Assembly (NCBI GenBank): GCA_017506865.1 | Contig: JAFCMP010000124.1 | Coordinates: 558,001-622,000 of the forward strand | Length of the DNA: 64,000 nucleotides | Source: Tribonema minus | Taxonomy: Eukaryota > Sar > Xanthophyceae > Tribonematales > Tribonemataceae | Direction of reading: 5' to 3' | In this document: positions 2,925-63,551 of the stretch, piece after piece | Layout: every line of letters starts with the position of its first letter | Position numbering within the stretch: the stretch's first letter is position 1 | Translations under genes and position numbers: made by a program | The notes under the pieces: model-generated | What the model saw: the letters and a program-made list of their open reading frames with translations, nothing else | Database searches by the model: none | What the model was told of the DNA's origin: nothing

Positions 2925-3225
2925 TCAAGAGGGGGGCTCCGCACCCCCCCCGCCGCTACCACTCCGCAGCGGCGCCGCCGCCGCGAACCGCGCGCCGCAC
3001 GCAGGGCACCCGTACTCGGCGTCATCCTCGCAGCCGACGCGCACGCAGTAGTAGCAGAACGTGTGGCCGCAGTCCGCAACATAGGGTTGCCGCGCGCGCA
3101 GCGCTCCGCACTCCACGCACCCTCCTTCCCCCCCCCCCGCCCCCGCGCCGCCGCGCCCCCCCCCCGCGCGCACCCCTAGCCGCCGCGCCGCCGCGGCGGC
3201 GCGCGCCGGCAGCCGCAGCGCGCGC

Positions 3226-3256
<31 letters not shown>

Positions 3257-6053
3257 CCGCGTGCTCCCACAGGAGGCGGCGCGAGAGGAAGGCGTAGTTG
3301 ATGGGCCGCGGCGCGGCGGTAGCGGCGGCGGCGGCGGCGACCATGCGCAGGCGCAGCGCGCGGTCGAGAGGGGTGGGGTAGCGCGCGCCGCGCAGGAAGG
3401 CGAGGCAGTTGAGGAGCCACGCGACGCGGTAGGCGCGGTGCGCGTGGGCGAGCACGGCCCACGCGAGCCTGCGGCGCGCGCGCGCCGCGAAGAGGGGAGG
3501 TTGGCTTGAACGTGGTTGTGGTGGTGAACAAGCAGTTCAGCGCAATGGCCAGCTTGAGGGTGTATGAGAAGGTCCAACTAGGCTATTGAAAGCAACCATT
3601 ATTTTGTGTCTAGTAGGTTTTGTGTGGGCAGTAACAGTAATGAGGACTGTTCCATACTTTCCAGCGGCTGTGGGGAATGCGCAGCAGGGATTGGCAAAGC
3701 AGGAGGGAGCCGCCAACATTGGTCAGGATTGGTGGCGACAGTGCAGCGGGCACATGGTCTTCATAAGTCTTGAACACACTTGTTAACTACGGCAACATCC
3801 ACCAGACAGCGCTGTGTCTCGCTGTCAGCGACGGCCACATGGCTGCTGCGCGTCGTGCACAATACCTCCTATACAGACTGTTGTCATACACTCAAAAGTA
3901 AACGGTTACTGCTGGAAGGCATTTGTGGCTAACCATCCCTTGTCACCTAGAGCTCTACGATATTTTAATTCGCTTTCATCAACAAGGACTGTGCGGGCTG
4001 CAGCACGCATGAAAGGATCCTGATGCAACGTGCCCTTGCGTCCTTTCCTGCACAGCGATGCTATTGCGGCCTAATACCGCCGCTGCTGCCAGCAGACCAA
4101 ACTGCTGAGATTCCAAAGGCATTGCGTAAGAAGCCCGTACTTCAAGACAAAAACAGATACTTTGTGAAGTATTTTGGCTCCCTTCCCCTCCACAGCACCC
4201 CGCGCTTAGCCCAGTTCCACCTCTCAGCACAAAACCCACCACCCACCCTTGCTGCAGCGCGATATTGCTTTGGTATCTTCTGACAAAAGTCAATTTCTCT
4301 CAATCACATGAAACAATGCTGAAGTGTGATATCGCAAATCGCTGACAAACATCAGCTCCTCTCAATCTCATCAAACAATGCAACAGCGCGACATCGCACG
4401 TCACTGACAAGGTATCATTTCCTCTCCATCAAACAACAAATGAATGCATTCATGAATGGATGAACTAAATTCACCAGCGAGGGGAGCCATGCGGAGCGTC
4501 GCCCCACCCCCTAGAAAGCCCCTCGCGCCTCGCGCGCGCCAGCGCCCACGGCGCCCCACATCTCTGACAAAAATCATATCCACTGAATCACCTCAAACAA
4601 CAAATGAATTCATGAATGGATGAACTAAATTCACCTGCGTGGGGAGCCATGCGGAGCGTCACCCCACCCCCTAGAAAGCCCCTCGCGCCTCGCGCGCGCC
4701 AGCGCCCAAGGCACCCCCACCCAGAGCGCCCCCCACGCGATGCGCTGCGACAGTCGCGGGTCTGCGAGGCCGGGGATGTGCGTGGCGGTGGCGGCGAGCG
4801 GCGGCGACGCTGACGCTATGGCTTCGTCCCTGTACCTGCGCGGATGCAGCGGTCAAGTGATCGTGGTGCTGGGAGTTGGCGAAGCTGTGCCATAAGATCA
4901 AGTGATCGTGGTGCTGGGAGTTGGCGAAGCTGTGCCATCAGGTGTGACATTCTTATACGTGTTGTTCAAGTTCACCAGGGACCACGCAGCTTGGTGTGAC
5001 GTCCACCAGGTGCGCCTACATGCAAGGCACTCGCTTGTCACCGGGAGTGGGATGTTGTCGGATTTGCTTGCATGGCTCCGGTCTGGCGGAGAAAGCGGCG
5101 ACTGCAATCACATCAAAGAACGTCGCACGCTGATGCTACCACTTCGCCCCCCCCCCCCCATGCGTCAGAAGACATCAGTGCCGTACTCAGAGGGTGCGAC
5201 GAAGATCAATGAACTGTAGCTGTCACATGCCGCAGCGCACTGAATTGCAGCTTCTGCTGCATGACTCTGAGGAATCCGTGAATGAAGTCCATCATTGCGT
5301 ACATGGACGAATTATTTAGGTGTCTGCAACCTCCCGTGCCTGCATAGCTCAGTGCTTGAAGTTATCTTGCGGTGATTGCAATCCGCTTGCGCTGTGGCAG
5401 TGCGTGCACCTGCATGTAAACAATGACCGAACACCCTGTGGGGGCCTACAACAGCTGAAAGGTTGTGTGTGCCAAGGGATTGTGTGCGGCGCGTGTCCTA
5501 TGCATTTGTAGGGTTTACTACTATGCACTGCAGTGTGCATTACTACTCTGCCATCTTCGCTATGCAATGATGCATGCCGAGAGAAATGGCACACACGACC
5601 TCGTATTCAAAGCCTTCACTGCAACTTGACAGCTTTGCTGAGTGCACCTCTTAAGCAGTATAGCACTGTCGTACAGCTTGTCGCCATAACAACGCTATGC
5701 TGACTTGCCATTGTGCTGCTGCAACCGATCTTGCACCTGAGATTTTGAAGTCGCATCCCAGGTGTTGGCACCTGCGCCATCACAGTGTATCCCCACAGCA
5801 GCAGCCTCAGCCCCGCCTCCACCTCCGGCTTGTACCTCTCAGAAAAACCCTGAGAGCACATTGAGAACACTCTCGCCAGCTGCATTTTCAGCAACTCCAT
5901 GAGCTCCCCATCGAGCACTCCAGCATCAAGCTGGTTCACACGAAGCACTGGTGGACTAGGTACAGGGGTGGCAGTGGCGAGGGCTTGCACCTGCGCCAGC
6001 TCGGGAATGGGCTTGGCCCAGTCGGTCGGCGAGGGCAGCGGCGCCTCCGCCAT
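2925..6053 (-). CDS. PEX2: Peroxisome biogenesis factor 2 (RING E3 ligase component), 3 exons
   Basis: Exons are 6053-5737, 4835-4635 and 3504-2925; phases join to one 365-residue frame (human PEX2 is 305). PEX2 is a multi-pass peroxisomal membrane protein which, with PEX10 and PEX12, forms the RING ubiquitin-ligase complex that recycles the import receptor PEX5. Exon 1 carries the family start (RVNQLDAGVLDGEL) and the FSERYKPEVEAGLRLLLWG segment. Exon 2 continues NLRYRDE and holds a hydrophobic helix. Exon 3 has LLNCLAFLRGARYPTPLDR, FLSRRLLWEH and a C3HC4 RING at residues 302-342 (CX2CX12CXHX2CX2CX12CX2C). Ala/Gly-rich expansion before the RING explains the extra length. The start MAEAPL is the first Met before the conserved block. 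The acceptor of exon 3 is chosen by phase. The exon 2 tail is duplicated in intron 2. Confidence 0.9.
3895..3990 (-). repeat. Dispersed repeat, copy 1
   Basis: Inverted copy of a sequence of about 75 bp with core AGAGCTCTAGGTGACAAGG and GCCTTCCACCAAT-like end. Other copies are at 18980-19060, 35890-35970 and 55380-55470. This one lies in PEX2 intron 2, just before exon 3 in genome order. Confidence 0.75.
4430..4560 (-). repeat. Decayed copy of the PEX2 exon 2 tail and donor, inside intron 2
   Basis: This segment repeats 4590-4720 about 160 bp away. It copies the last third of exon 2 (the frame encoding ARREGLSRGWGDAPHGSP) and the intron start that follows. In the copy the donor context has changed from GCAG|GTGAA to GCTG|GTGAA. 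Further upstream (4290-4430) a shorter, more degraded repeat with a recurring CTCAATCxCAxxAAACAA pattern continues the series. Confidence 0.8.
4853..4938. repeat. Exact 41-bp direct repeat, 45-bp period, in PEX2 intron 1
   Basis: 4853-4893 and 4898-4938 are identical and lie just upstream (in transcript order) of the exon 2 acceptor. The lack of divergence indicates a very recent tandem duplication next to a splice site. Confidence 0.9.
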
Positions 6054-6076
6054 TGCACTACGTAGTAGTCTGATGG

Positions 6077-6193
6077 CACTCACACTCACACTCACACTCA
6101 ATAGGTACTTCAACTTGAAGTCAAGATTGGCGCCTTGAAGTTTGGGGTTGTTGCAAGTGTGTGTGTGTGTGTTAAGCGTGTGCGTGTGTGTGC
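6077..6193. repeat. Microsatellites just upstream of PEX2
   Basis: A CACACT-type repeat at about 6077-6101 and an interrupted TG repeat at about 6157-6193 flank the probable PEX2 5' untranslated region. They may fall in the promoter or leader, but no core promoter motif could be assigned. Confidence 0.6.
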
Positions 6194-6199
6194 ATAAGA

Positions 6200-10040: not shown

Positions 10041-10048
10041 TTGACAGC

Positions 10049-10517: not shown

Positions 10518-13500
10518 TCACTTCTTCAACAACCCCATGTTCCTGCATGGCTCACAAGGACAGCGTGCGCTCACCAGACTGGGAAGATGGATGGGCTTCG
10601 AGTGAAACAGATCTGCACCAGCGCTCAGCGCCTCCGCCGCCTGCGCCTCCGAGCAGTTGGCGGAGATGACGACGACGAACTGCGGGCGGCGGCGCGGCGG
10701 CGGCTGCTGCTGCTGCTGCGGCGGCGGCGGCGACTGCTGCTTCTCCCATGCGCGCAGCGCTGCGAGCGTCTCGATGCCGCTGAGGCGCGGCATGTTGAGG
10801 TCGAGGAGCACCTGCACGCGTGTTGCAAGGAATGGGGGCAGCGGGGCCAAGGGGGGGGGGGGGGGAGTTTTAGGACAGGCCCCATGCAGTATGCACTTTT
10901 GTGGGGGGAAGCACGGGGGCGCATAGTGTACATGAGCATCACGGGGCCCCCAGCATGCACTTTTGTGGGGGGGAAGGGGGCACATAGTGTATATGAGCAC
11001 CACTGTCTCGGCGCCGCGAAGGCAATTGCGTGTTTGCGTGCAGGCGCGTGCGCTCGCTTGATCAGCGGCGTGCACTGTTGCTGCAGCGGGAGCTGACCCG
11101 AGGCCTGGTCACGCATGCCTTTGGCGCTGCAGACACCTTGTTGAAATGATCTGTGGCATGAGCGACCGTGGAAATAATAACTTCGAGCAGGTGACGTTCC
11201 AGCACCCACTCTCTCAAGACACTGGACCACGAGCACCCGCATGCAACTTCGGCCTTGCTGCTGCGCTCCCTCTCAAGACCGGACTAAATGCGCAAACAGC
11301 TCGGAGCAGTTCGCATTTGAAGTGTGAGCAGAGCCTACACGCAACCCCGGCGTCACCGCCGTGCATGCCCTCACGACCATAACAAGCGCGCAATCAGCTC
11401 GGAGCAGTTCGCATTTGAAGTGTGAGGAGAGCTCGCCGCTCACCGCAGCGAACGCGCACGCCTTCATGACCACACCGAGTGCGATATCGGCCTGGAAATA
11501 TGCGTCTACAAAGTGTGAGCGGAGCTGCCCTCACGACCACACCCATACGCGCAATCAGCTCGGAGCAGTTCGAAATTGAAGTGTGAGCAGAGCCTACACG
11601 CAACCCCAGCGTCACCATTGCCCTCATGACCACACCGAGCACGACATAAGCTTAAGAATATGCGTCTACAAAGTATAAGCAGAGCTCGCCGCTCACCGCA
11701 GCGAACGCGCACGCCTTCATGGCCGCACCGAGCGCGATATCGTCTTGAAACTATGTGTTCGACTACAAAGTGTGAGCGGAGCTCGCCACTCACCGCAGCG
11801 AATGCGCACGCCTTCATGGCCTCCAGGCCCTCTGCGCCGTCGCAGGCGACGACGACGTCATAGCCGCGCGTGCCCAGCATGCGCGCGAGGAAGCGCCGTA
11901 ACGTCGCGTCGTCGTCCACCACCAGCACAAGCGGTTTTGCCTCACCTGCCAGCGAAGGATTAGATAATCGGGTTAGGGCTTGGGTTAGCGCGAAGACATG
12001 CATGGCTTTCTCAGATGCGATACTGAGAATATGCGTTGTAAAAACGGTCGTGTTTGACCTCAATTTGTCATGCGCGTGAGGAAGCGCCGTATTGTCCCGT
12101 CGTCGTCCACCACCAGCACGAGCGGTTTCGCCTCGCCTGCCCATGTGACGTGTGCATGGCACTCTCACAGGCTCGACGTTACTCAAGGTATGCATTGTGA
12201 GAAGGTTCATTTCACCTCACTCTGTAACGAACCCGGAACGAGGAAGCGCCGTACCTGGCGTCATCGTCCACCACCAGCACAAGCGGTTCCGCCTCGCCTG
12301 CTACTAGTAGTGGCGGTGCGCAGACATGTGCGTGGCAGTATCAGAGGCTCTGATATCAATAATGTACTTCAAGTGCCAGCTGCCGAGGGCATGAGCAGTT
12401 TCTTTTCTCATGCGTTATGCGCGACTGCAGACACTATGATGGTGCGTGTGCTGGAATTGCCAGTGGGAAGAGGTGTGTTGCGGTGTAGAACGCTAAGCTT
12501 AACCCTAAGTCTTGTCTGGTGCAGGGGCAGTAGCAGGTTGAAGACGTGCAAAACTTGGGAGGGCCCCTTCACAACATGCAGCTGCACGGTTTTCTGTGCC
12601 ATTCCCACAGGTAATCCAGCTACTTGAAGGCAGCTGACATTACAACAACGCCATACGGCGTCATTAACCTACGCACGGCGCACAGTGCATTGCTGTGGGG
12701 CAGAGCGGCAACTTGAACGAGGGGAACTGTCGGGCTTGCATCAGGCCACATCGTCGATTCGCTCAGGCGCACGTGTGGTACTTGAACACTGACTGGCATT
12801 TGAGCGCTGTGCATGTACCCACCATCAATCAAGTTCAGCGACGGCGCGCTCAAACGCGCGCCGTCGCAGCTGCCGCCGCCGCCGCTGCCGCCGATGCTGC
12901 CGCCGCCGACGCTGCCGCCAGCGTCCCCGCTGCCGCGCCCATCAGCAGCACTGCTGCTCAACGCATCACAACGCTCAACAGTCCGCATCAGCGCTCCATC
13001 GCCAACAGCAGCCGATGCAGAGGTACTGGTGGAGGCACTGCCTGTGCCGTTGTCGCTGGCATCGGCAGCAGCAGCGAGCAGCGGCGGCGCCAAAAACGTC
13101 TCCCGTTGAGGCGGGTGCCGGGCTGCTGAGCACTGTGTGGTTTCGACGACTACTTCGGTGCTGCGGGCGGCGCTCTCGCACGCGCTCCGCGCACGCCGCC
13201 GCGCTGATGCGCCGTCGCAGGAGGTTCCGGAGGCGCTGGCGGCGTGGTCACCACAGGCCGTGGCGGCCGTCGCTTGCGCAGTAGAGGCAGAGGCGCTAGT
13301 GTTTGCGGCGGCGGAACCAGCTTGATGGTCTGCAGCGACGGGACCGTGGCAGCCCTCACTGTGCACGTTGGAGAGCGCAGCATCGGTCGGTGCGTGCGCA
13401 GCGCATACGCTGAGCGCTGCTGCAGTAGCGCAGGCGCTCCGCAGGGCCGGCAGCCGGGACGGCCGCGGCAGCTGCGTATTCGCCTGCGCGCACGGATGCT

Positions 13501-16500
13501 GCCGCTCTTGAAGTTTATAGGACGCGCCCTTCAATGGCTGGTTCGCAGCCGCATTGCACGGCGGGACTTGAAGTTCGCTGCGCGCCGCGGCAGCAGCTGC
13601 AGCTTCGCCACGAGCCGCAGCAGCAGCCGCCGTGTCTCTGCGGTCCGAGGCATCATCAGTGGCGCCGGCGCCGCTCGAGGGGCTGCTGCCCACAACGGGT
13701 ATGTAGGGTATGGAGAACCAGAACTTGACGCCTGACGAGGAGCCGTGGCTTGCGCTGCAGGGTGCGGCGGCGGGGCAGACGATGCCGCACGCGCCTCCGA
13801 GCGCTGCTGCCTTGACCGACATGCCGTGCAGGCCCAGGCTGAGGCCGCCGCGCAGCGTGCCTGGCGTGCGGCCCCGCCTGCCTGCGGTTACGGGCAGTTA
13901 CGGAGAGCAGAGCAGCGCTCGGCATGGTGAGTCACTGATGTTATGGGGCCGCGCTGATGCGGAAGTGCGCCTGCACTCCCCACTGCATGTGCGCACGTAT
14001 GCTGAGTGAGTCGCGTTGAAGAGGTATATGGAAGCCTCGTCGAGGTGGGCCTGCTTTGGCCGTTGAGCACATAAATTTGCACGGGAGGAAAAGCAGCAAG
14101 TATGCAAGAAATTGCCTTAGAAACAAGAAATGTACTTAGCCTCTTGAAAAGTATATCTACATTGAAGTATGCAACTGTGTTGAAGTTGGCTCCGCATTGC
14201 TGGGCGCTGCTGTATGTGCTGCCATTTATGCTTGCCTGGACCCAGGGCGCCACGCACGGCATGCGCCCGTGCTTGCTCGCGGCGGCCATGTGCAGCAGTA
14301 TTGAATCTGAGCTACATCACCTGGAACTTGACGGCTGATTAGAGAGCCACAAAATCACGTCGCACAGCGCACAGACCTGTTAATGCCCGACCTGCCTTGA
14401 AGTTTTGTAGCTGAGAAGCCATGAGGTCAACGCGCTGTACCCTATTTTTGACTCTTTAGATGAATTGGCATTGCTGAGTGCTGCTGCGTGTACTGCCGTC
14501 GTAATGCGGCGCGCAGCTCCAGAGCGCGAGTGTCACCTCAGCAGCAGCGTGCACCCCCAAGTCTCATTCAATTGAGTCGTGACCCTATATTAAGCTGCGA
14601 TTCAAAGCAGCTCCATTGTCAGCAAACAACGACAACTCAGAGTGCTAGACTCACGTGAAGTTGTCCCCAGATGGACGTGGAGCTGTGGTTAACAACGACA
14701 ATGCAGAGTGCCAGACTCACGTGAGTTTGTCCCAGATAGACGTTGAGCTTTGGTAACCAACGGCAACGCAGAGTGCTACTTAGACTCACGTGAACTTGTC
14801 CCGGATGGACGTTGAACTGTGATGAACAACGACAATGCGGCAGTGCTACTTAGACTCACGTGAACTTGTCCCAGATGGATAATGAGCTGTGCTGAGGCAA
14901 CCCCACGCCGAAGTCGCGTACGCCGAAGCGCAGCTGCGTTCCATCATCCGTCAGAGAGACGGTCGTGATGACGACGCGCGTGCCGTTGGCGTGCTTCTTG
15001 GCATTGCTCATCAGCTGCAGCAGCATGTCCTGTGGAGTTGCAGTAGGTGACGTGCCGGTGGCTGAGCAGGAGTGACACTATGAGCACGGGCACGCAAGAG
15101 TTGAAGTATTGGCCATGACCCCGCGTAGAATGGACCTCATGCGAAAATAATAACCGCTGAGTCAGGTATTGGCTTTCCATCCTTCATTGCTGAGACTTTC
15201 GTTACGGCGTGCTTCTTGGCATTGCAGCAGCTGCAGGAGCACGTCCTGTGAAGTTGCATTTGGTGACGTGCCAGAGGTTGAGGTACAAGCATGTGCACGC
15301 AAGATTTGGGATATGGATCATGAGCAAACAACAACCGCCGAGCAAGGCATTGGCTTTCTGTCCTCCATTGCTGACTATTGTGATGGTGGCACGTCTCAAC
15401 GGCGTGCTTCGTGGCATTGCTCAGCAGCTGCAAAGGCATATCCTGTCAAGTGTGCAGTAGGTGACGTGCCGGTGTTTGAGGTACACGCGCGTGCACGCAA
15501 GAGGTGAGGTATAGACCATCACGCAAGTAAAAATCGCCGAGCAAGGTATTGGCTTTCGTCCTCCATTGCTGACTATTATAAGGGCACGTGCCAATGGCGT
15601 GCTTCGTGGCATTGCTCAGCAGCTGCAAAGGCATGTCCTGTGAAGTTGAAGTAGGTGATGTGCCGGTGGTTAAGCACGAGCCGCGCTACAAGCATGTGCA
15701 CGCCCAACAGTTGAAGTAATGGCGATGACGCCGCGTGGAATGGACCTCATGCAGTAACATTACCCGCCGAGTAAGATGTTGGATTTCCGTACTCCATTGC
15801 TGAGACTATCGGGATGGGGGCACGTGCCGACGGCGTGCTTCTTGGCGTTGGTAAGCAGCTGCAGGAGCATGTTACGTCAAGTTGCAGTCGGTGACATGCC
15901 AATGGTTGAACATGAGCCAAAGCAGGGGGTCACCGTGAGCTCCATCCCCCTCCTCAAACATCGCCCAGTGACGTGAGTGCGGAAGGGGGAGGGGCCCAGG
16001 GGAGGAGCCAAGAAAGCATCAGATGCAGTGGCAGCTGCTACAGGCTTTGTATGTCACGCAGATGGCATAATTATGCTGTCAAGATAGTCCTGGGTGACGA
16101 CACGATCCAGTGCACGACCTACCTGTTGGTCATTGCTCGATGTTACGTGTGAGAAGACAGGTCAAACGCACAGAGTGAGTGGTAACTACCCTAGTCGCAT
16201 ATCGCCATGACCGCGGCCTTTTCGGCAGTTATTAGCTCTGCGTGAATGTATTTTCCTCACAACTTCAACTTCACAGCACCACGCTCCACGCCGACGCCGC
16301 GCGCACCTGCAGACAACCGAAGTCCGTCGCGACCTCCTGCGCTACGGCGTCATCCACGCGACATGTGAAGTTGCAGTCGGTGACGTGCCAGTGGTTGAAG
16401 ATGGGGGAAGGGCCCGGGGGGAGGCAAGGGTATCATCAGGTGCGGCGGCCGCTGCTACTTCTACACAAGCTTCGTGTGTCAAGCAGATGGCATAGTCATG

Positions 16501-19500
16501 CGCTGACGTTGCGCGCACCTGCAGCCAGCTGAAGTCCGTGGCGATCTCCTGAGCTACGGCATCATCCACGCGGCACTGCCAGTCTATTGGAGCGGCCTTT
16601 GCGCTCGATGCTGCACGGCTTGCCTTCAAGCCGGCACCGCCGCCCGTGCTGTCTGACCACAGCTGCGGCGCGGGCTCCGGCCCTGCTGCAAGATCGGCGC
16701 TCATGAAGTGCGCGCGCCTGCGGCCGGAAGTAGGGTTAGGGCAGATGTTACATAGGGTGGGAGTTTCTGCTGCGAGGTCGGCACTCGTGAAGTTCGCGCA
16801 CCTGCAGGTGGAACGAGGGTTAGGGCCAGGGTTGAGGTTGGCGTGAGGGTTAGGGTGGGGAAGTGGGGCAAGTAGGTGCGGCCCGAGGGTAGGGTTGGGG
16901 CTAGGTTCAGGATGGGGAATATTGAGGTGAGGGCTAGGGGTCGCGTCTCGTTGCGCTGTGAAGTAACGCACAGTGTACACACGTGCAGAGTGTACGCCTG
17001 CGATGTTCTATAACCATAGCTACTTAGCGGGAGGGGTGCGTTTTTCATGTATACGGGGTACAAGCAGAGTTGCAGCCCCTCATGCAGCACAGTAGCTTTC
17101 GGCACTGTACCAATTGCTAATTCTCGCTTAGGCACCGTCCTTACAAGTGGGCCCCGCAGCAAGTGGCGCACCGTGTACAAACATGCACAGTGTGCGCCGT
17201 CAATATTGTAGAGCCGGAGCAAGTAGTGTGGCATCCTCCCGTTTCTGGGGTAGAACCAGTGTGCAGCCCTTTACGCAGTACAATAGCTGTCGGCATTGTA
17301 CTTTTATTCACTGATCGAGGCACAGCTGTACTACTGGTGATCCCGCACTGAAGCCACCGCAGGTCTCAACACTGTTACAAGCAGACTGGGGTTGACCTTC
17401 CGCAGGCCAATCAGGCTGAGGTTCACGCTCGGGCGGGGGGGGAGGGATTGCACACTTCACCTTCAACTTCTATACCAGCTGACTAGCCAAAATGACGGGG
17501 GCTGTAGGCGAGTGGAATTTGTTGCTGAATGATGTATGAACTTGCGCCAGCAGACTCGGCTCGATGAAAACAATGTCTGCTGGACACATCTTCTGAAGCC
17601 GATATATATCCAGTACTTGTTTATGGCTGCTAGTGCTGTGCTGCCACTACATGTGCCGCTTCTCTTTGCGCTATGACCGATCACTTCTTTGCGTGCCCCC
17701 CCCAGGGAGCACCGTGGTCCCTAACACGTGCATGTCAAGCACAAGAGAGATGCAGCCAGGACTGGTCCAAACATGCTGAGTCTGCCTTCTTCAAACGTGA
17801 CTGTACTCTGCTGCGTCATGTTGCACCAATTTCTGCAGAGGTTCTCTACCTTTTCGTGAGCACCCTGACGCTGCCGTTGCTGAGCACTGGGCTGGGGGTG
17901 TGGCCCTCGGAGTACGCCGCGGCGTCGAGCGCCTGCGTGCGGATGGCGTTCATGGCGCCTAGCGCCAAACCCTGCAGTAGGGCGCACATTACAGATTAAC
18001 TTGCGGTGATACTTGAAGTATAAGAAAATGTGGAGGCTAGTGTTGGGGGAGGCTGAAGGAGCGGGGCGCGCGGCCGTCGCTGTACAGTTCATCAGTGTAC
18101 TTGTGTGCAGTACACTTGGAGTACGCCGCGGCGTCGAGCGCCTGCGTGCGGATGACGTTCATAGCGCCTGGCGCCAAACCCTGCAGCAGGGCGCACATGT
18201 TCAGATACTTGAAGTATGAAAATGTGGGATGCTGATGTGGGGCTGACAAACGCAACGTGTGTGGCCATCGCTGTACAGTTCATCAGTGTACTTATGTGCA
18301 GTACAGTTGAAGTACGCTGCGGCATCGAGCGCGTGCGGATGGCGTTCATGGCGCCCAGCGCCAACCCTGCAGGTGCGCATGTTGGAAAGTCAACTTGAGG
18401 TAATACTTGAAGTATGAAATGTGGAGGCTGATGTGAGGGGGCGGATGCAACGGGGCGCGCGGCCAATGTACGGCTTAGTGTACTTGTGCGCAGTACACTT
18501 GGAGTACGCCGCGGCGTCAGCGCGTGCTTGCGGACAGCGCCCAGCACCAAAGTTGTGGGCGCACACGTTGATATACTTCACAATTGAACGTGCAGATGCT
18601 ACTTGCCATGCCTCGAACTTTCCAACACAGTCATCTGATCAGTTGCGATGCCGGCAGAGGGCAGCATGGCTGCGTTGGCAAAAAGCGAGAGTAATGCACA
18701 AATGATGTTTGGGACCGCAAACAGGTGGTGGGGCCTGCCAGAGTATAATAATACAGGGACTCAAGTGCCACAGCATGTGGCATGTCACTTCGGTATGCAT
18801 GTACTTCGAAGTATGTGTTCATACGTTCAAGCACATGCACACGACAGACGCAGCCTCTGCCAGAGACATCGAATACACTTGGAAAGCACGTATGGCGTCA
18901 GAGCAGAGTAGATTGCTAGGGTTTAGACCCTAGCAACACACACAGGGTACACAGGGCCTCCGTTGGGGAGTTTACCAATGGAACCTGAACAAAAGATCGC
19001 AGAGCTCTAGGTGACAAGGAGTGGTTGGCCGCAAGTGCCTTTCACCAACAATACTACATAGAAGTGAAGGAAAATAAAGTCTATGAGTACGACGTTGCAG
19101 ACTACAATGTTGCAAGCACCTGCATGTCCAGTATTTGCTGCATTGTGGGCGTCAGATCGGGGCCCTCTCGCAGCAGTTGCAGGCCCAAGGAGAACGTCGC
19201 GAGGGGGGACCCGATGTCATGGGCAACCTGCGCGAGTGATTGTAGGTGACGCGGTAGAAGATGAAGGGAGGATAGTGAGCCCAACCTGGCAGTCAAGCGG
19301 CATAGTGTCAGGCTATGGACACCAAGCCAGCGATGGCCGGCCAGCTAGTGGAGCATTTTACTTTTTTTTTATTTTTACCGCAACCCTATTCCTAACCCCC
19401 AACACTAACAGTAAGCCTAGTACATGACCGGGCAACGGCACCTGACATGGCGAGATGTAGTGCTGCGCCCTTCACAAAGGCTATACGACGTCGACACGTG

Positions 19501-25186: not shown

Positions 25187-25189
25187 CGC

Positions 25190-47834: not shown

Positions 47835-47839
47835 TGTTT

Positions 47840-49080: not shown

Positions 49081-49095
49081 GCACACCCCTGACCA

Positions 49096-49537: not shown

Positions 49538-49544
49538 GTGTGAG

Positions 49545-51980: not shown

Positions 51981-51996
51981 CTCAGCACTGTGTACT

Positions 51997-54900: not shown

Positions 54901-55120
54901 TGGCCGAGTGCGAACGTATGTGCCGATGAAGTAGTCGAGGAAGTCCGGCAGCTGTGCTGCTACCCATTCCGCTGCCGCCAGGACGAACACCATGTTGAAG
55001 GCATTCTTGAGGTCCAGCATGAACTGCCAGTGACCGAGCTCATACGCGAGTTTGCCGGCCATGGCCGCTTTCTCCGCTCCTGCTGAGACGGCTACCCCAT
55101 ACTGCCCGTCTGGCTCAAGG
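51997..55120 (-). mobile_element. 5'-truncated non-LTR retrotransposon (RT plus restriction-like endonuclease type)
   Basis: The element is bounded by 13-bp direct repeats AGCACTGTGTACT at 51984-51996 and 55121-55133, a target-site duplication. Its 5' end falls inside the reverse transcriptase, so it is a dead-on-arrival copy. The 3' end is AATAAAAA without a long poly(A). Downstream of the RT come a CCHC finger and a restriction-like nuclease region, as in site-biased non-LTR lineages with an RLE instead of an APE nuclease. A 140-bp 3' fragment of the same family is at 21591-21731. Confidence 0.9.
52104..54257 (-). pseudogene. C-terminal half of the retrotransposon ORF: Ala-rich insert, CCHC finger, RLE-like nuclease
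   Basis: Begins with the post-RT motif ARLPTRHGGLGITSA. About 300-400 residues of Ala/Thr/Pro-rich low-complexity sequence follow (about 54060-53190). Next comes a CCHC finger, CKLCGKSPGGTLHARLC (CX2CX8HX3C), then a region with RRMDIVLPADAF and LMVDVTCFEAQ that fits a PD-(D/E)XK restriction-like endonuclease core. The frame ends at 52104. It is joined to the RT frame only across a frameshift near 54211-54257. Confidence 0.75.
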
Positions 55121-55122: not shown

Positions 55123-55133
55123 CACTGTGTACT

Positions 55134-55808: not shown

Positions 55809-58800
55809 TTACTCGTCGTCGCTGGCGACCTTGCCCGCGTACTTGCTGGTGATCTCCTTCTCCACGTTGGCGGGAAGGAAGTCGTACTTCTTGAGCACCA
55901 TGGTGTACTGCGCGCGCCCCTTGGAGACGGAGCGCAGGTGGCTCACGTACTGGAACATGTTGGCGAGGGGGACCGCCGCCTCCACCTGCTTGAGCCCGTT
56001 GCGGTCGATCATCTCCACGACCTGAAGTGGCAGCAGCAAGTTCAAGTTAGAAGTGAAACTCGCAGGTCGATATCATCTCCACGACCTGAAGTGGCAGCAG
56101 CAAGTTGAAGTTAGAAGTGAAACTCGCAGGTCGATGACACAAGAGAAGACAATGCGGTCGCATCATCTCCACAACCTGAAGTGGCAGCGGCGAGTGGATG
56201 TTGCGTGTTGGGGTTAGAAGTGGAAGTCGCTTACAAACAAGAACTCGCTTGCTGAACAAGACCATGACACAAGAAGGGACAGTGCAATATGGCCGCCTCT
56301 GCCTGCTTGAGCCTGTTGTGGTCAATCATCTCCACGACCCGGGTGGCAGCGGCAATTCGAAGCTACTTCGAAGTATGTTTCCGAGTTACAAGAAGAAAAA
56401 CTCGAGGGAGCAGGTCGGTGGCACAAGGCAAGACATCGTGAGTGGCAGCAGCCAGAGCGGTGAAGGACATTTTACGGTTAAAGTTGACACTCGCGTACTT
56501 TGGCAGGTCAGTGAAAAGGGCAGGGAGTTGAAGTTATGTTTTAGGTTGGAGTTGAACCTCGCATGCTGAACAGGTCGATGACACTGGGGATGACAACGCG
56601 GTGCAGCCGCCTCAGCCGGCTTGAGCCCGCTGCGGTCAATCATCTCTACTTGCAGGGTGAGGGTCATGATTGGACTTGACGTCAGAAGTAAGTCGGCCAT
56701 CCTCACCTGACGACGGGGTTCGATGGCACAGCTGCCTCCACCTGCTTGACTGCGCGGTTCATTTGCACGCCATGATGCAGATGTATATCATGATTGAAGT
56801 ACACAAACATGCAGTGTTCAGCTGTGTCACGACATCCACCATTTCTATGTTTGAAGTTATTGTTGAAGTTACTTGTCAAAGCTCTGTGCTTGTCAAATGG
56901 TGTGGGAACGTTGGCTCTTTGGAGTGTGAGCGCTCGAGCGCCACTGCCAAGCAAGCAAGCACGCACCTGCCTGCGCCGCGAGTACCTGTCCCCAATGTCC
57001 CCCATGTACTCCTCGAGCAAAAAAAAACTTCTATTGAGTTACAGTGCTTGTTGAGTACAATAGTGAACCAGAAGTTCACTATGCCTGAGTTTCATTTTTC
57101 TCAAGTTGCATTTGCTGAGCGCTGCCACGCACCTGCCCGCGGCGGGAGTTGATGTCCCCGATGATGTCCACTATGTACTCCTCAGGCATCAGGACGACTT
57201 GCTGTTTTTTGTTCAAGGTACATAAGGACTTACATAGAAGTATTATCCAATTGAGTCGTTCACGAAGTTGGCCACTTGAATTGAACGCGCTTGAGCGCCG
57301 CTGCCAAGACCCCTTGCACGCACGCACCTGCCCGCGCCGGGAGTTGATGTCCCCGATGATGTCCCCCATGTACTCCTCGGGCGTCACGACGTCCACCTTC
57401 ATGATGGGCTCCATGAGCCTTGCGCCCGCCTTGCGCAGCCCCTCGCGCGTCGCCGCGCGCCCCGCAATCTCAAACGCCATCACCGAGGAGTCGACGTCGT
57501 GGTAGGCGCCATCCACGAGCGTGGCCTGCGGTACGGTAGGTACGGGATGGTCATGTTGAAGTTGAAGCTTGAGCTGAAGGCATGAGAGACGATTTCGAAC
57601 GCCATCACCGCCAAGTCGACGTCATGGTAGGCGCCGTCCACGAGCGTGGCCTGTGAAGTGTATGTGTTGAACTTGAAGGTTGAGTTAGAGCCCTATGTAC
57701 CAAAAACATTATAAGGTGTCAGATTGGACCGAAACAGACACTTCAACTTGTGAAATGAAGGACAATCTCAAACGCCATCACCGAGGAGTCAACGGCGTGG
57801 TGGGCGCCGTCCAGGAGCGTGACGTGTGGTAGACATGTGTGTGATGGCGTACAGATGTTGAAATTTGCGCTGCAGGCATCATCCACGTTGCGCGAACAGT
57901 CATGTCAAGATCGCCTGTTGCAAGCCTGCATCATCAGATCTGCATCACATCGCAAACCTTAAGTTCCTGCAAACCTCAACTTCTTGCGTTCCTCAAGTTA
58001 AACTTCAAGTCAGTCAGCGAGCCCCCCCCCCAACACGCACCTTGAGTCCGAGCACCGGGAACCCGGCCAGCACGCCGTTCACCAGCACACTCTCAATGCC
58101 CTTCAACATGGCCCGGATGTACTCGTTGGGCACAGACTCTCCCGCAACCCAAACTTCAAGTTAAAGTTCAAGCGCACCTTGCCAGCACCGGGAATTCGGC
58201 CAGAACGCCGTTCGCCAGCACGCACTCAATGCCCTTCTGCACGCCCAGCATGGACCCGCCCTTGATGTCGCACATTGAGCTTCAAGTTGAACTTCAAGTG
58301 AAGCAAAAGCTACGCACCTTGAGGCCGAGCACGGGGAAACCAGCCAGCACGCCATTCGCCAGCACGCTCTCAATGCCCTTCTGCACGCCCGGGATGTACT
58401 CCTTGGGAACAGAGCCTCCCTTGATGTCGCTGACAAAGGTGAAGTCTGTGGCGGACGCCTCGTCGCCCTCCTCCACGGGTGCGAACTGGATCTTGACGCG
58501 CGCAAACTGGCCGGACCCGCCCGACTGCTTCTTGTGCGTGTAGTCGATCTCGGCCGTCTTGGTGATCGCCTCGCGGTACGCCACCTGCGTGAAAGCAAGC
58601 AGCCATGCGTGTTAATTATTCATTCAGGTGTGTGAATTCACGTGTGTTCATTCATGAGTGTGAGTTTCATGTGCATGACTTCACGAGGGATTGTCGCGCA
58701 CGGCACCGGCCTCTGTAGGCCTTGGGCTGCGCCTGATACACCTACATGGCGCGTGCTGTATTATGAACATGGCAGTTGATGCAGGTCCCCAAGGTGTGTA

Positions 58801-61800
58801 CTTGCTTCCTCTCCCCCCACAACCATACACTTCCAACCATGTCAGGCAAACCCGCCATGCCAGTACATGCGCTGCGGAAGCGCGATACGTACCTGCGGCG
58901 CGCCGACGCTGCACGCCACGTTGAACGCAACACGCTGCAAACAATACCTTAGTGGCTGGAATTGCGCAACTGCCATGCTGAACCGCGCCTGCCCCCCCCC
59001 CCCCCCCCCTTCAAACACCCATACCCCCCGCCCACCCCTAACACACACAAACATACACTTCCACTCATGGTTATCAACCCCACGTCATGCCAATACATAC
59101 CCCACGGAGCGTGATACATACCTGCGGCGCGCCGACGGTGCACGCCACGTTGAACTCGCGCATCATGCGGTCGACGATGATCTCCAAGTGCAGCTCCCCC
59201 ATGCCTTCGATGATGGTCTGGCCGGACTCCTCATCACGCGAGAAGCGGAATGACGGGTCCTGCGGTGGCGCGCGCGCAGAAGACATGTCGTTATGTAACT
59301 GACGTCATTTAACTGATATGAGTGTATCTGTGCGCGCCAAGGACATGTCAGTGGCGTTGTGAAACCGACTGACATGGTGTATCGCCGCATGCAGCTAGCT
59401 CGCCCATGCCTTCATGGTGGTCTGGCAGCCTCCTCATGTTATGCAACTGACGTCATGTAACTGACGCTTGTGTACCTCCACGTGCAGACAGCTCATCCAC
59501 GCCCTGCATAGTGGTCTAGCCACAGACTGCTCTTCATGCAACAAGCAGGAGGCGCGTATATAACTGACGTGACTGACACGGTGTAACTGGCGTTGAGTAC
59601 AAAAGTAACAGCGTACACGAGACAGCATGAGAGTTTGACGGGGCTCCGTGCCAATGTGCGCCCCAGCCAGCAGCCCCTGCAAACGCTCCGCCAATCATTT
59701 CATGCCGGGTCTGCCTTACCTCACCGGATTGAACTTACATCTAACACAGCGAACTGTACGAGTCGGCCCATTGAGTACATACTATTACAACCGAATAATG
59801 TACGTTTAAAGTACCATGTTTGGCAACCACATAGGAGTATATGAGTGCTACAACAAGTTGGGCCCGTGGCTCTAAGCCTACGACCTCTAACAATAAATTA
59901 TACAACTTCAACACCTCATCCCGCCTGACCTTGCGCACCACGCCAACCATACGGCAAGCCCGTGTGATATTCAACAAGTTGTGAGCTTACACTACTCCAA
60001 CAGGTGACCATCCGCAAACGTGCGCGCACTGCTCACCTCAGCCCCCATTTTCATAAGCGCGTTGCCCATCTTCTCTTGAAGTTCAACAACAGCAACCTAT
60101 GCTACTTCAACAGGTGACCATCCCCAAACGTGCGCTTACCTCAGCCCCCAGCTTCATGAGCGCGTTGCCCATCTTCTCATTGTCGGCCTTGGTCTTGGGC
60201 TCCACGGCAACCTTAATAACGGGGTCCGGGAAGTCCATCTTCTCCAGAATGATGGGGTCCTCCTTGGTGCACAGGGTCTCACCGGTGGTGGTGTCCTTGA
60301 GGCCCGCCAGCGCGACAATGTCGCCTGTTAAAGTCAACAGAACAATGTTGAAGTTCACAGGAAAAGTTGAAGCTCACATAACAATGAAATGTTCAGGAGA
60401 TCTGCTTTGGGTCTCTTATGCTGCACTGAGGCCCGGCATCAAATCAAACTGTGCTCGTACGGCAAGGGTGGTTACAGAGCAGCTCCAGCATGCGGCTGAA
60501 GTGTTCGCTCTTGCAATGTCAGTCACGGCAGCTGCGCTCTTAAGCACTCGCTCTTGCAATGTGTCAGTCATGGCAACTACGCTCTTTGAGAATCCAGTTC
60601 AAACACCTGAAATCGCCGCTTCTCTCATCTGCGCGTGCCTGCTTGATCTTCTCCTGCGAGATGACATCTTTCTCCATCAAGCATCGCTCTCAGCTGAATC
60701 AGTGACAGCGGCTGTAACTGTTGCCGTGTAACTGCCGCTTCTCTCACCTGCGCGCGCCTGCTTGATCTCCTCGCACGAGTTGACACGCATCTCCAGCATG
60801 CACAAATCACACTAGCACACTCAAATATGGCTGCGATAACTGCAGCCCACCTGCGCATGCCTGATTGAACTCCTGCGTCCCCAGTATGCGCTCTCAGCTA
60901 ACTCAGTTACAGCGGCTGTATCTGTTGTTTCTCACACCTGCAAGTTGAACTGCATCTCCAGCGAGCATCGCTCAAGCATCATTCTTAGCTGAATCAGTTA
61001 CAGCTGCCGCAACTGCTGCTCACCTGCGCGCGCCTGCTTGATCTCCTCGCGCGAGTTGGCGTGCATCTCCAGCATGCGGCCGATGCGCTCGTTCTTGCCC
61101 TTGACCGAGTTGAACACGGTGGTGCCCGCGTCCATCACGCCGCTGCGGAGCAATGACACAGGTGGCATGGCTCAGCACACAGTCAATGGTGAGCACTGCT
61201 TCATTCAATATATGGTGGTGCCCGCGTCCATCACGCCGCTGCGGAGCAATGACACAGGTGGCACGGCTCAGCACACAGTCAATGCTGAGCACTGCTGCAT
61301 TGACACGGTGGTGCCCGCATCATGGACGCCGCTGCTGAGCAATGACACGGGCAGCACGGCTCAGCGCGCAGTCAATGCTGAGCACTGCAGCATTGTACAC
61401 GGCGCGGCCCACCTCAAGCACCGCTGCAGAGCAATAAATCAGCTACTACAATGCGCACACGTGCTAGGACGAACATGCGGGTAAACATGGCATGTGTCAG
61501 GCAAGAATTGAACGAATGAAATGGGCAACAGGGATATTGAGCTGCTTTTCCGCAAGCACAACTGTCACTCTGCCAGCGCTTCGCAGGGACACAGAGCACT
61601 TGATGAAAACAGAGCACGTGGCGAGTCACCGATTCACTGCTCCTTGTGCTCATTGATCGCGATGAATTCACGCACCTGTAGATGCGGATGAAGGTGAGGG
61701 TGCCGACGAAGGGGTCGTTCATGATCTTGAACGCCAGCGCAGACATGGGCTCCTCATCGCTGCTCATCGAGAGAAAAAAAGGAGGTGGGGGGGGGGTTCA

Positions 61801-63551
61801 GATGCAGGTTTCTGGCAAACTGGCACTGTCATGGCGCAGTAGTATCGGGTACTTCCTAAATGTGATGGTAGGAGGGATGAGATGTGCAGTTGCACATGGC
61901 GACAGTGGTAAAAGTATTGTGCTATGCTAGATTATGCAACTGACGACAGTGGTAAAAGTATTGCGCTATGCTAGATTAACAGAGGTCGCAGTTGCCACTC
62001 GACGGAGCAAGCATATCCTTTGTACTATGACAACACATGTACATGTGTATAGTATACACTTGCATGCAATAAAGTACACAACTATGCATGTGCATAAACG
62101 ACAGGTGTACATGCAGCAAGCGTTGAGCACATTTCAAGCTAACCCTAAGCTCAAGCTCAACTTGTAGAGTTCAAGTTGCAAAGTTGAAGTACCTGGACTT
62201 GCGCGACATCTCCCTCTCCGCATCATCGGGGTCCACGCCCTGCGCCAGTAACAAGGGTTTGAGGTGAGCGTTGAAGTGAGGGGACAACGCGCATATGAGA
62301 AGTTACAAACACGGGGACGCTCGGCAAGAAGACAATGTGAACACGAACCAGTGACCGGCCATAGGTGGCCGTGTTGAGGAGCTGCGACAGCACACTATGT
62401 GCGGTAAAACACATTTGTGCGAGGAAATGCGCCGTATTCAAGATGCGTCACTGACGCATTACGGCATATTTTGGCATATGGCGCACGCAGCTGGCCGCCG
62501 CAGTGCTCAGCAACAGCGGCACGGCACCACAGGCACCAGCAGCAGCAGATACCTACATACCTTGATGGCAGCGACGTCGGTGGGTGCTGGCATGTAGTAC
62601 ACAACAGCGTCCAGCAGGGGCTGCACACCTGTCATGGTAGCGCAGTCGCAAAGCAGGATTGGTCGCTGCGCAGACGTCCATGCGACATCACAATTGCAGA
62701 TTTCGGACACATTGGCATCTGTGCGTGCGTGTGTGCTTAGGGCGTGGGATAGTGGAATGCAGAGGAGGTTGATCACTCTGAGTTTAGGCCAGGGGACATC
62801 ATAATTGTCGTACTGGACACAGCGCCAGGCTTAACATTAAAACTCAAATAAGAGGGTTGACGGGCCTGAGGGGAGCGGCGCCGCACAGCAGCGCCAAGCT
62901 TGACATTCAAAGCTGATAGGGGGGGGTGACGCACCCAAAGGGAGCCGGTGCCGCCAAGAACATGCTGACACACAGATTTCAGTGACTATACCCACAAGGT
63001 AATACGTGTGGAGAAGCGCCGTTAACACTAGCCCTAACCCTGCCAGTCGACGAGCTGCTGTGCGCAATATGCCTAACCCTAACCCTAGCCCTATCGCAGC
63101 TGCACACTCCAGGTGCTCTATCCTGTCAGCAAAGCGCTGTTCGTTACGCGAGATCAGGACTGCCAGGGGCACGCTTGCACAGCCAAATGCTCCAGGTACT
63201 CAATGCCAGTCAGCGAGCTGCTGTGCGCAATATGCCCTACCCCTAATCGCAACTGTGACCGTGACCTTAACCTTAACCCAGGACTGCTAGGGGCGCGCTT
63301 GAGGCGGGAGGCACAGCTGACTGCGGACTGAAACGAGTGCCACACCTCACCCTGACCCTATTCAACACACAAAGCATGAGAGCTGAATATGCACCTGAAG
63401 GTGACGATGCACATTACGAGACGTGTCGTATAAAACAGCCTTTGCTTACCCTTGTTCTTGAAGGCAGTGCCTGTCAGCACGGGAACAAAGGCACCGCCGA
63501 GGGTGCCCTTGCGGAGGCACTCACGCAGCTTCTCCGTGTCCGGGGATACAC
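55809..63551 (-). CDS. cpEFG: Plastid translation elongation factor G, ten 3' exons (5' part beyond window)
   Basis: Exons 63551-63450, 62628-62561, 62239-62193, 61759-61676, 61142-61024, 60324-60140, 59259-59122, 58584-58318, 57525-57328 and 56021-55809 join in phase to 472 residues ending in TAA. EF-G is the GTPase that moves tRNA and mRNA through the ribosome. Visible are the end of the G domain ([14 protein letters not shown]), domain II ([53 protein letters not shown]), domain III ([19 protein letters not shown]), domain IV ([40 protein letters not shown]) and domain V ([37 protein letters not shown]). The NSRRGQ and FQYVSHLR wording and overall pattern match chloroplast rather than mitochondrial EF-G. 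The GTP-binding loops and any transit peptide lie beyond 64000. Confidence 0.93.
56060..56755 (-). repeat. Head copies of the last EF-G exon
   Basis: The acceptor junction CACTTCAG|GTCGTGGAGAT recurs near 56075, 56165, 56328 and 56641 (real 56011-56021), with a trace near 56735. The first unit is only about 64 bp and nearly identical; others are more diverged. Confidence 0.9.
56945..57190 (-). repeat. Two tail copies of the [17 protein letters not shown] exon
   Basis: Copies of the end of exon 57525-57328 lie at about 57131-57190 ([18 protein letters not shown]) and 56950-57015 ([16 protein letters not shown], degraded), each ending in a GTGCGTG donor. Confidence 0.9.
57600..57830 (-). repeat. 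Two head copies of the same EF-G exon
   Basis: Copies of the sequence encoding [20 protein letters not shown] at about 57600-57655 and 57768-57830, upstream of the real acceptor at 57526. The exon is flanked by duplications on both sides. Confidence 0.9.
58035..58265 (-). repeat. Two tail copies of the [12 protein letters not shown] exon
   Basis: Copies of the last 90-110 bp of exon 58584-58318 ([20 protein letters not shown]) at about 58180-58265 and 58035-58140, about 140 bp apart. Confidence 0.9.
58875..58925 (-). repeat. Tail copy of the [11 protein letters not shown] exon
   Basis: The end of exon 59259-59122 with its GTACGT/GTATGT donor is copied about 230 bp downstream at 58875-58925. 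Two internal copies of the same exon (MGELHL region) lie upstream near 59395-59445 and 59488-59540. Confidence 0.8.
60010..60080 (-). repeat. Tail copy of the [13 protein letters not shown] exon
   Basis: The last 40 bp of exon 60324-60140 and its GAG|GT donor, plus about 35 bp of intron, recur about 105 bp downstream. Confidence 0.85.
60620..61445 (-). repeat. Tail and head copies around the EF-G exon 61142-61024
   Basis: Tail copies (encoding [18 protein letters not shown] and the GTGAG donor) lie near 60736-60795, 60848-60880 and 60626-60665. Head copies (acceptor CCGCAG then GCGTGATGGACGCGGGCACC) lie near 61210-61275, 61305-61345 and, degraded, 61395-61435, about 90 bp apart. Confidence 0.85.

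What the first reader, a model, noticed from the sequence alone, without database searches (positions are those of the whole stretch)
2925..63551. Introns are built of decaying tandem copies of their own exon-intron junctions
Seen directly: across at least five genes (PEX2, two histidine kinases, a transcription-factor-like gene, plastid EF-G) most introns contain 1-12 copies of the neighbouring junction. Copies of an exon tail plus donor follow the exon; copies of an acceptor plus exon head precede the exon. Units mix exon and intron sequence and decay with distance from the real junction. Because splicing from the outermost donor to the innermost acceptor still gives the right protein, such duplications would be nearly neutral, which suggests a ratchet that lengthens introns. 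Intron gain by tandem duplication of AGGT-containing segments is an established model; a genome using it so widely, on both sides of exons, would be unusual.
Basis: partly seen in the sequence, partly recalled or inferred. Interest (0 to 1): 0.92.

Follow-up and report, generated by a model that had tools for sequence, protein, structure and literature searches.

The report
Intron arrays copied from exon edges
In this alga most of the introns we sampled carry one or several worn, same-direction copies of the edge of the neighbouring exon, usually with its splice site, as if exon borders keep being copied into the introns beside them, which gives a directly readable record of how introns change and a natural test of how the cell ignores decoy splice sites.

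Summary
The window lies in an unnamed 158-Mb eukaryotic assembly whose EF-G is closest to Vaucheria and Chrysoparadoxa (ochrophyte algae). Of 103 introns between strong predicted exons in 294 kb, 81 carry a direct copy of the upstream exon's tail (61) or the downstream exon's head (49), usually with the splice site; reverse-complement controls give 1 and 3. In homology-certified EF-G, 6 of 8 introns have them. Copies sit beside their source, up to 8 per junction, less similar with distance. They drift largely without codon constraint while the exon is constrained. Many keep donors scoring as well as the used one, so position probably decides splicing. Intron-gain geometry was not seen (0 of 243 copies).

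"Introns are built of" these copies is too strong: they cover 18.6% of intron bases, and array introns are not longer. Plain duplication and decay is incomplete too: linkers are far more diverged than exon-derived parts. Best model: local tandem duplication across junctions, tolerated because the exon-proximal site wins, with the selected exon as a fixed master that probably re-homogenises its copies. Ten searches of an open-access library listed no description of this.

The parts
55809..62635 (-). Organellar-type EF-G gene, nine exons read in the window (55809-56021, 57328-57525, 58318-58584, 59122-59259, 60140-60324, 61024-61142, 61676-61759, 62193-62239, 62561-62635 partial at its 5' end), eight introns with GT-AG ends
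   Evidence: Exon chain joined; aligns over its length with EF-G proteins
56022..57327 (-). EF-G intron 8: donor-side copies 57127-57196, 56961-57018; acceptor-side copies 56725-56775, 56606-56649, 56292-56339, 56153-56181, 56065-56091 (the 64-bp unit at 56008-56135 is a 98% identical young tandem duplication across the acceptor)
57526..58317 (-). EF-G intron 7: donor-side copies 58173-58255, 58035-58143; acceptor-side copies 57763-57829, 57592-57653
58585..59121 (-). EF-G intron 6: donor-side copy 58887-58926
59260..60139 (-). EF-G intron 5: donor-side copy 60031-60078 (the acceptor-side copy 59397-59437 is weak: 11 of 500 shuffles reach the acceptor-side score)
60325..61023 (-). EF-G intron 4: donor-side copies 60845-60877, 60743-60801, 60624-60682, 60479-60514
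61143..61675 (-). EF-G intron 3: 96-bp units of acceptor plus 29 nt of exon head, copies at 61214-61244 and 61300-61335
   Evidence: TRF 61114-61402, 3.1 copies of 96 bp
40945..42460 (+). Intron with eight donor-side copies (41013-41089, 41134-41186, 41224-41269, 41317-41365, 41420-41470, 41528-41586, 41633-41689, 41766-41800) and one acceptor-side copy 42292-42384, in a gene without Pfam match
45910..47599 (+). Intron with five donor-side copies (45991-46052, 46122-46170, 46242-46305, 46494-46538, 46880-46931)
42665..44059 (+). Intron with donor-side copies 42727-42820, 42891-42948, 43245-43311
34137..34940 (-). Intron inside a GAF domain of a histidine-kinase-like gene: donor-side copies 34777-34854, 34634-34721, 34464-34540, 34319-34400; acceptor-side 34251-34284
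   Evidence: the GAF match spans the junction
30602..33834 (-). Intron of the same gene: five donor-side copies (33680-33747, 33534-33610, 33404-33467, 33257-33321, 33034-33073) and five acceptor-side copies (30701-30769, 30834-30901, 31032-31096, 31179-31247, 31339-31401), four of the five with exon part 61 nt and one with 60
10812..11793 (-). Intron inside a response-regulator domain of a second histidine-kinase-like gene: donor-side copies 11692-11724, 11439-11471
   Evidence: the Response_reg match spans the junction
15015..16518 (-). Intron with acceptor-side copies 15200-15236, 15401-15432, 15584-15627, 15802-15864 and donor-side copy 16301-16363
17972..19796 (-). Intron with acceptor-side copies 18115-18186, 18311-18372, 18498-18534 and a short donor-side copy 19697-19722
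3469..4634 (-). Intron of a Pex2/Pex12-like gene with donor-side copy 4469-4557
   Evidence: Pex2_Pex12 match

Best explanation
DNA segments that straddle an exon-intron border (roughly 100-220 bp in the arrays, shorter in most fresh events) are duplicated locally in direct orientation. A duplication over the donor leaves extra copies of the exon tail plus donor downstream of the real donor; one over the acceptor leaves extra copies of acceptor plus exon head upstream of the real acceptor. Because the splice site next to the intact exon is used, the copies are removed with the intron and the protein is unchanged, so they are tolerated. New copies are added next to the exon and older ones lie further out. 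The copies drift as largely non-coding DNA. The exon, held constant by selection, stays as a fixed master; exchange between the exon edge and its copies (gene conversion or unequal recombination) probably keeps refreshing the exon-derived part while the linkers between copies diverge. Shown: position, orientation, copy numbers, weak coding constraint, gradient, decoy donors, mismatch between linker and exon-part divergence. Inferred: splice choice by position outside EF-G, order of events, and recombination as the cause of homogenisation.
For: Direct v inverted 340 v 1. Junction copies in 81 of 103 introns against controls of 1 and 3. Donor copies lie in the 5' half of the intron in 132 of 143, acceptor copies in the 3' half in 92 of 100, and where both occur they are ordered in 27 of 29. 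Copy-private differences per codon position 0.057/0.051/0.075 against exon-private counts 7/7/39; 174 of 194 indels in the exon part are not multiples of three. GT kept in 75 of 98 copies and AG in 45 of 58, in line with neighbouring positions. 70 of 114 GT-keeping donor copies score at least as well as the used donor. Gradient by rank 0.913, 0.868, 0.850, 0.830, then 0.852 for rank 5 and beyond, donor side; linkers show a weaker gradient, 26 arrays v 10. Homogenisation: mismatch between intronic copies 0.207 in the exon-derived part v 0.441 in the first 50 nt of linker, 29 of 29 arrays; of 32 copies whose 40-nt exon part is nearly identical (score 70 of 80 or more) only 1 has a linker score of 60 or more, where a shared-clock simulation gives mean linker scores of 57-64. 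Young full-unit tandem duplications exist, one of them across the acceptor at 56008-56135.
Against: No RNA was available; use of the exon-proximal site rests on protein homology in EF-G and, for two further introns, on Pfam domains. Copy-private changes still show a third-position excess (p 0.0003; 0.057/0.058/0.074 at G/C sites), so constraint on some copies is not excluded. Where both parts still align, copy-v-copy divergence is the same in exon-derived and linker parts (0.111 v 0.123, p 0.35, 42 of 270 pairs; exon part alone aligns in 122, linker alone in 6, neither in 100), which is what duplication without conversion predicts. Copies were found by their exon part, so linkers are judged without that filter. 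The mismatch clustering that conversion should cause is small (longest clean run 20.9 v 19.2, reached in 0 of 500 permutations, 119 copies). Young unit-length duplications are mostly away from junctions (11 of 14) and short (median period 45 bp), whereas nearest copies in arrays have a median offset of 146-156. Linkers are rich in simple motifs and may simply mutate faster.
Confidence: 0.52

Rival explanations
1. Blind local tandem duplication everywhere, with survivorship and detectability doing the rest: duplications inside exons are purged, those in introns fade quickly because both copies drift, those spanning a junction stay visible because one copy, the exon, is frozen. No conversion; linkers just mutate faster.
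For: Young unit-length duplications fall in introns (6), unassigned DNA (5) and exon edges (3) of 14; no exon-only cluster among 145; exon-derived and linker clocks agree where both align; linkers are slightly AT-richer (51% v 55% G+C) and motif-rich.
Against: Clusters touching an exon edge number 89 against 23 intron-only and 26 unassigned, where uniform placement at those rates predicts about 7-9 (not corrected for the longer visibility of exon-edge copies); linker and exon-part scores are only weakly coupled (rho 0.27) and nearly perfect exon parts sit beside old linkers (1 of 32).
Confidence: 0.3
2. A junction-directed copying mechanism (tied to transcription, R-loops, chromatin on exons or splicing intermediates) that specifically copies exon edges plus splice sites into the neighbouring intron.
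For: Strong concentration at exon edges; local repeats cover 30% of intron bases against 9% of unassigned and 16% of exon bases; median shortest period 131-147 bp in every cluster class; nearest donor-side copy never starts closer than 32 nt to the donor (61 arrays); 3 of 14 young unit-length duplications straddle a junction where about 5% is expected for a 45-bp period.
Against: Three of 14 is a small number and two of the three are long units (164 and 177 bp) that straddle junctions more easily; linkers often keep residual homology (33% of registered linker pairs exceed the 95% point of a shifted baseline, at least one pair in 35 of 46 arrays), so the copied unit is not cut at the splice site. 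The 9% is uncertain because missed exons lie in the unassigned DNA.
Confidence: 0.1
3. The copies are alternative, mutually exclusive or regulatory exons, or functional decoy splice sites.
For: Many copies keep strong splice sites (70 of 114 donors score at least as well as the real one); 152 of 243 have no frame-breaking indel in the aligned part; copy-private changes have a mild third-position excess (p 0.0003).
Against: The far end of the exon is rarely found in the intron (6 and 5 of 103), so copies are mostly half-exons; the third-position excess is far weaker than in the exon (0.057/0.051/0.075 v 7/7/39); 91 of 243 are frame-broken and GT/AG are neither lost nor kept beyond neighbours; in EF-G the protein is complete without them.
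Confidence: 0.05
4. [quoted passage not shown]
For: Same kind of event, and the donors are CAG|GT-like.
Against: That model puts the exon-1 tail copy at the intron's 3' end and the exon-2 head copy at its 5' end; 0 of 143 and 0 of 100 copies lie so (within 4 nt).
Confidence: 0.02
5. Artefact of gene prediction, low-complexity sequence or assembly.
For: Most exons are ab initio predictions.
Against: EF-G is homology-certified and shows it in 6 of 8 introns; reverse-complement and foreign-intron controls are near zero; 68 of 82 introns with complex exon edges show it; copies range from identical to about 28% different from the exon, with indels, unlike assembly duplicates.
Confidence: 0.01

Closest known systems
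[quoted passage not shown] vertebrate ATP2A1, fission yeast, potato RdRp; passages of PMC4974935)
   Same: Local direct duplication inside genes, splice signals copied along; those passages also mention an 83-bp duplication inside a potato intron
   Different: Here existing introns receive copies of their own borders; the gain geometry was not seen and it touches most sampled introns instead of single cases
Human introns derived from tandem arrays (Zhuo et al. 2007; only its title seen, in the reference list of PMC3488318)
   Same: By its title, tandem arrays and introns
   Different: Not read, so detail is uncertain; here arrays are anchored to coding exon edges on both sides of introns
Short tandem repeats forming complex patterns in the Haematococcus lacustris genome (passages of PMC7617258)
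   Same: Short repeats arranged in tandem over long stretches of an algal genome
   Different: A different lineage; the passages do not speak of exon edges or introns of nuclear genes
Patch-mediated or nick-induced tandem duplication during DNA repair (plants; recalled, not read here)
   Same: Short local direct duplications of tens to hundreds of bp; the 64-bp unit at 56008 looks like such an event
   Different: Not known to me to build exon-anchored arrays
Introners / introner-like elements (recalled)
   Same: Genome-wide process that shapes introns
   Different: Introners share one sequence family between genes; here each array copies its own exon, and foreign-intron controls are almost empty (1 of 346)
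Tandem exon duplication and mutually exclusive exons (recalled)
   Same: Repeated exon sequence inside one gene
   Different: Here mostly half-exons with one splice site, often frame-broken and weakly constrained

Membership tests
Intron gain by tandem duplication (Rogers model) | Exon-1 tail repeated at the intron's 3' end and exon-2 head at its 5' end | tested here: not met
   0 of 143 donor-side and 0 of 100 acceptor-side copies
Intron gain by tandem duplication (Rogers model) | Intron absent from the same site in relatives | not testable with these tools
   No relative's genome is held
Local tandem duplication arrays | Direct orientation, short offset | tested here: met
   340 direct v 1 inverted at 50-1600 bp
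Local tandem duplication arrays | Whole unit, linker included, shares one divergence | tested here: inconclusive
   Equal in the 42 of 270 pairs where both parts align, but linkers are far more diverged overall
Introners | Same sequence in introns of unrelated genes | tested here: not met
   1 of 346 foreign-intron probes of exon edges; only short motifs such as TTGAAGTTG are shared
Alternative or mutually exclusive exons | Both splice sites, open frame, coding constraint | tested here: not met
   Far exon end rarely present (6 and 5 of 103); 91 of 243 frame-broken; copy-private changes only mildly third-position biased
Concerted evolution by gene conversion | Exon-derived parts more alike than flanks of the same unit | tested here: met
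   29 of 29 arrays, 1 of 32; faster linker mutation and ascertainment are not excluded
Concerted evolution by gene conversion | Mosaic tracts within copies | tested here: inconclusive
   Small clustering only: 20.9 v 19.2 nt, 0 of 500 permutations

The most novel reading that the evidence does not exclude
Coding exon edges act as permanent master templates: recombination keeps re-copying each exon edge with its splice site into the adjoining intron, so introns are lastingly seeded with strong decoy splice sites that the spliceosome ignores by position alone. That would be an exon-anchored, two-sided form of concerted evolution between coding and intronic DNA running through much of a genome.
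Probability: 0.35. Interest if true: 0.88.

Novelty: new variant of a known kind. Interest (0 to 1): 0.74.

Why it matters
How introns grow is usually hard to read because intronic DNA decays. Here a fixed reference, the exon edge, sits beside a graded series of its own copies, so birth, decay and possible conversion can be measured in one genome. The arrays are also a natural experiment on splice-site choice: 38 of 52 arrays with GT-keeping copies have at least one decoy donor that scores as well as the predicted real one, which would argue for exon definition or first-donor choice. Practically, such arrays will mislead gene annotation: my gene finder called four EF-G copies as exons.

Tried and rejected
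Organism: I first took it for Haematococcus (G+C content, TTAGGG-type motif; PMC7617258 gives an AACCCT telomere motif and a 151-Mb assembly, passages read); EF-G hits to Vaucheria litorea (85%) and Chrysoparadoxa australica (81%), the best of 120 listed among 7999 scored, overturned that.

Junction targeting: the 10- to 13-fold excess of exon-edge clusters looked like targeted birth, but fresh unit-length duplications are too few to show it (3 of 14), so I do not claim it.

Exon-tail-only copying (linker never copied): rejected as a general rule because 33% of registered linker pairs exceed the 95% baseline point and 35 of 46 arrays have at least one such pair.

Selection against decoy donors: tested, not seen. 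Longer introns with arrays: not seen.

The motif TTGAAGTTG near copy starts is enriched in all non-coding DNA and was left as an observation. At least two of ten printed repeats without a predicted exon look like edges of exons that my gene finder missed (my reading); a coding-potential test of such cores was weak (12 and 9 cores).

Ten literature searches showed no title or abstract start describing exon-edge arrays in introns. I saw at most 20 rows per search (of 1,595, 779, 74, 36, 26), one search found no paper, and the library holds only open-licence papers, so this is weak evidence of absence. Papers of which I saw passages: PMC7617258, PMC12702839, PMC10400597, PMC6687776, PMC4974935, PMC3488318.

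Full report
Setting. The window is contig C124:558001-622000 of an unnamed 158.18-Mb assembly in 554 contigs. Its EF-G protein is 85% identical to Vaucheria litorea and 81% to Chrysoparadoxa australica, both PX-clade ochrophytes, so the organism is most likely an ochrophyte alga. I also read 200 kb directly upstream and five 10-kb pieces of other contigs. Two of those five (L025, which has 71.5% G+C and dense long ORFs and looks bacterial, and L026) came last and enter only the tally.

Repeats. Within 264 kb, direct repeat pairs at 50-1600 bp number 340 against one inverted pair, and cover about 20% of bases. Three other pieces show the same, with 10, 7 and 21 direct and no inverted pairs. Grouped, the pairs of the 264 kb form 145 clusters: 89 touch an exon and its intron, 23 are intron-only, 26 lie in unassigned DNA, 7 join exon and unassigned DNA, and none is exon-only. 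Among 182 strict hits (93% identity, 30 bp or more, 294 kb) 83 touch an exon edge, 71 are intron-only, 23 unassigned and 5 exon-to-exon; many intron-only hits are copy against copy (the last point is my reading).

Gene models. A codon-based gene finder with splice models was trained on the DNA itself; it settled on CAG|GTG(A/C)GT-like donors and GCAG| acceptors. EF-G is the anchor: its nine exons in the window join into a protein that aligns over its length to EF-G proteins; in the one printed alignment no gap falls on a join. Pfam matches confirm Pex2_Pex12, GAF and HATPase_c, Response_reg and HATPase_c, and RVT_1 in the other models; the plus-strand gene at 40-48 kb has no match. The GAF and Response_reg matches run across two array-bearing introns.

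Junction copies. In 103 introns, the 30-nt exon tail recurs in its own downstream intron in 57 and the 30-nt exon head in its own upstream intron in 43; controls give 0 and 2 of 103 (reverse complement) and 1 of 346 (foreign introns). Wrong-side tests give 6 (head v downstream intron) and 5 (tail v upstream intron) of 103. The signal decays to near background about 100 nt into the exon. A profile over distance shows a local copy for 54% and 47% of the outermost 30-nt exon windows, 25-30% just inside the donor, and about 20-30% in mid-intron, so introns hold other local repeats too. With longer probes 81 of 103 introns have copies on at least one side: 143 donor-side and 100 acceptor-side copies, up to 8 and 6 per junction; 122 and 84 of them reach the splice site. 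By place: window 26 of 29, upstream 49 of 64, other contigs 6 of 10; the tally with L025 and L026 was 6 of 15, with none of 5 introns in those two pieces. In EF-G it is 6 of 8. In some arrays the exon part has the same length in every unit (for example 75-76 nt in seven copies), in others it varies.

What the copies are. They are mostly half-exons with one splice site. Changes private to one copy are much more even over codon positions (0.057, 0.051, 0.075 per site) than changes private to the exon (7, 7, 39), so the exon is coding and the copies largely are not; a mild third-position excess in the copies remains (p 0.0003; also at G/C sites alone). Of 194 indels 174 break the frame and 91 of 243 copies are frame-broken. 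Splice dinucleotides are neither preserved nor purged beyond neighbouring bases (GT 75 of 98, AG 45 of 58). Yet 70 of 114 donor copies that keep GT, and 26 of 77 acceptor copies that keep AG, score as high as the predicted real site, so strength alone would not explain splice choice.

Order. Donor copies sit in the 5' half of introns (132 of 143), acceptor copies in the 3' half (92 of 100), and similarity to the exon falls with rank. Linkers also fall with rank, more weakly (26 arrays v 10). This fits serial addition next to the exon. The geometry of intron gain by duplication was not seen (0 of 243).

A clock that does not fit. If a unit of exon tail plus linker were duplicated once and then drifted, linker and exon part should tell the same age. 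They do where both still align (0.111 v 0.123 between intronic copies, 42 of 270 pairs). But over all arrays linkers are much more diverged, even between two intronic copies (0.441 v 0.207 mismatch, 29 of 29 arrays), and linker similarity hardly depends on exon-part similarity (rho 0.27): of 32 copies with a nearly perfect 40-nt exon part only one has a linker score of 60 or more, where simulation gives means of 57-64. Part of this is ascertainment, because copies were found by their exon part; the near-perfect subset is hard to explain so. I read it as homogenisation by the exon (conversion or unequal exchange), with faster linker mutation as the main rival. The mosaic signal is small though above all 500 permutations (20.9 v 19.2 nt).

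Birth versus persistence. Fourteen young, full-unit tandem duplications were found in the 264 kb: 6 intron, 5 unassigned, 3 exon edge, median period 45 bp; about 5% at edges would be expected for that period. Births are thus spread over non-coding DNA, perhaps with some excess at edges, while lasting arrays concentrate at exon edges and have larger periods. I therefore do not claim junction-targeted birth.

Size. Copies that carry an exon edge cover 18.6% of intron bases and any local direct repeat 35.5%. Array introns are not longer than others (982 v 1199 nt, 81 v 22 introns, p 0.71), although copy number rises weakly with length. In EF-G the two introns without copies are the two shortest (321 and 433 nt). 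So 'introns built of junction copies' overstates it, and the length ratchet remains a hypothesis.

Literature. Passages of PMC4974935 describe intron gain by tandem duplication, including single cases in vertebrates, yeasts and potato, and an 83-bp duplication inside a potato intron. PMC3488318 cites human introns from tandem arrays (title only seen). Nothing in the rows listed by my ten searches describes exon-edge arrays of this extent.

Noticed in passing
window 23239-23285, 33467-33904, 42678-42723, 42849-42874, 45146-45185: Interstitial telomere-like TTAGGG/CCCTAA tracts inside or beside introns; TTAGGG is denser in array introns (8.3 per 10 kb) than in other introns (1.7) or unassigned DNA (4.6) and absent from exons, CCCTAA less markedly so (7.1, 4.7, 2.4, 0).
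   Followed up: partly
introns throughout, e.g. the seven-copy array 155 kb upstream of the window printed: The nonamer TTGAAGTTG and its reverse complement occur 39 and 26 times in sampled introns against 0.6 expected each; hexamers of this kind are densest in linkers, often just before a donor-side copy.
   Followed up: partly
window 52104-55062, minus strand: Reverse transcriptase-like retroelement ORFs (RVT_1) in a stretch free of local arrays.
   Followed up: partly
L025 (G000:C1:50001-60000): A 2.45-Mb contig with 71.5% G+C and dense long ORFs on both strands: probably a bacterial companion in the assembly, not the alga (not tested further).
   Followed up: no
L026 (G000:C100:50001-60000): Long open exons, four inverted repeat pairs and no junction copies in its two tested introns; may be mobile-element DNA (not tested further).
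   Followed up: no
window 55809-62635: The best solved-structure match is 6not (Elongation factor G, E 6.6e-173), well ahead of mitochondrial EF-G entries (6ydw, E 3.7e-91), so plastid v mitochondrial targeting of this EF-G is open.
   Followed up: no
nearest donor-side copies, all loci: The gap between the predicted donor and the first copy is never under 32 nt (61 arrays) and mostly 50-131 nt (44 of 61); a splicing constraint on spacing, a property of the duplication, or of my detection.
   Followed up: no
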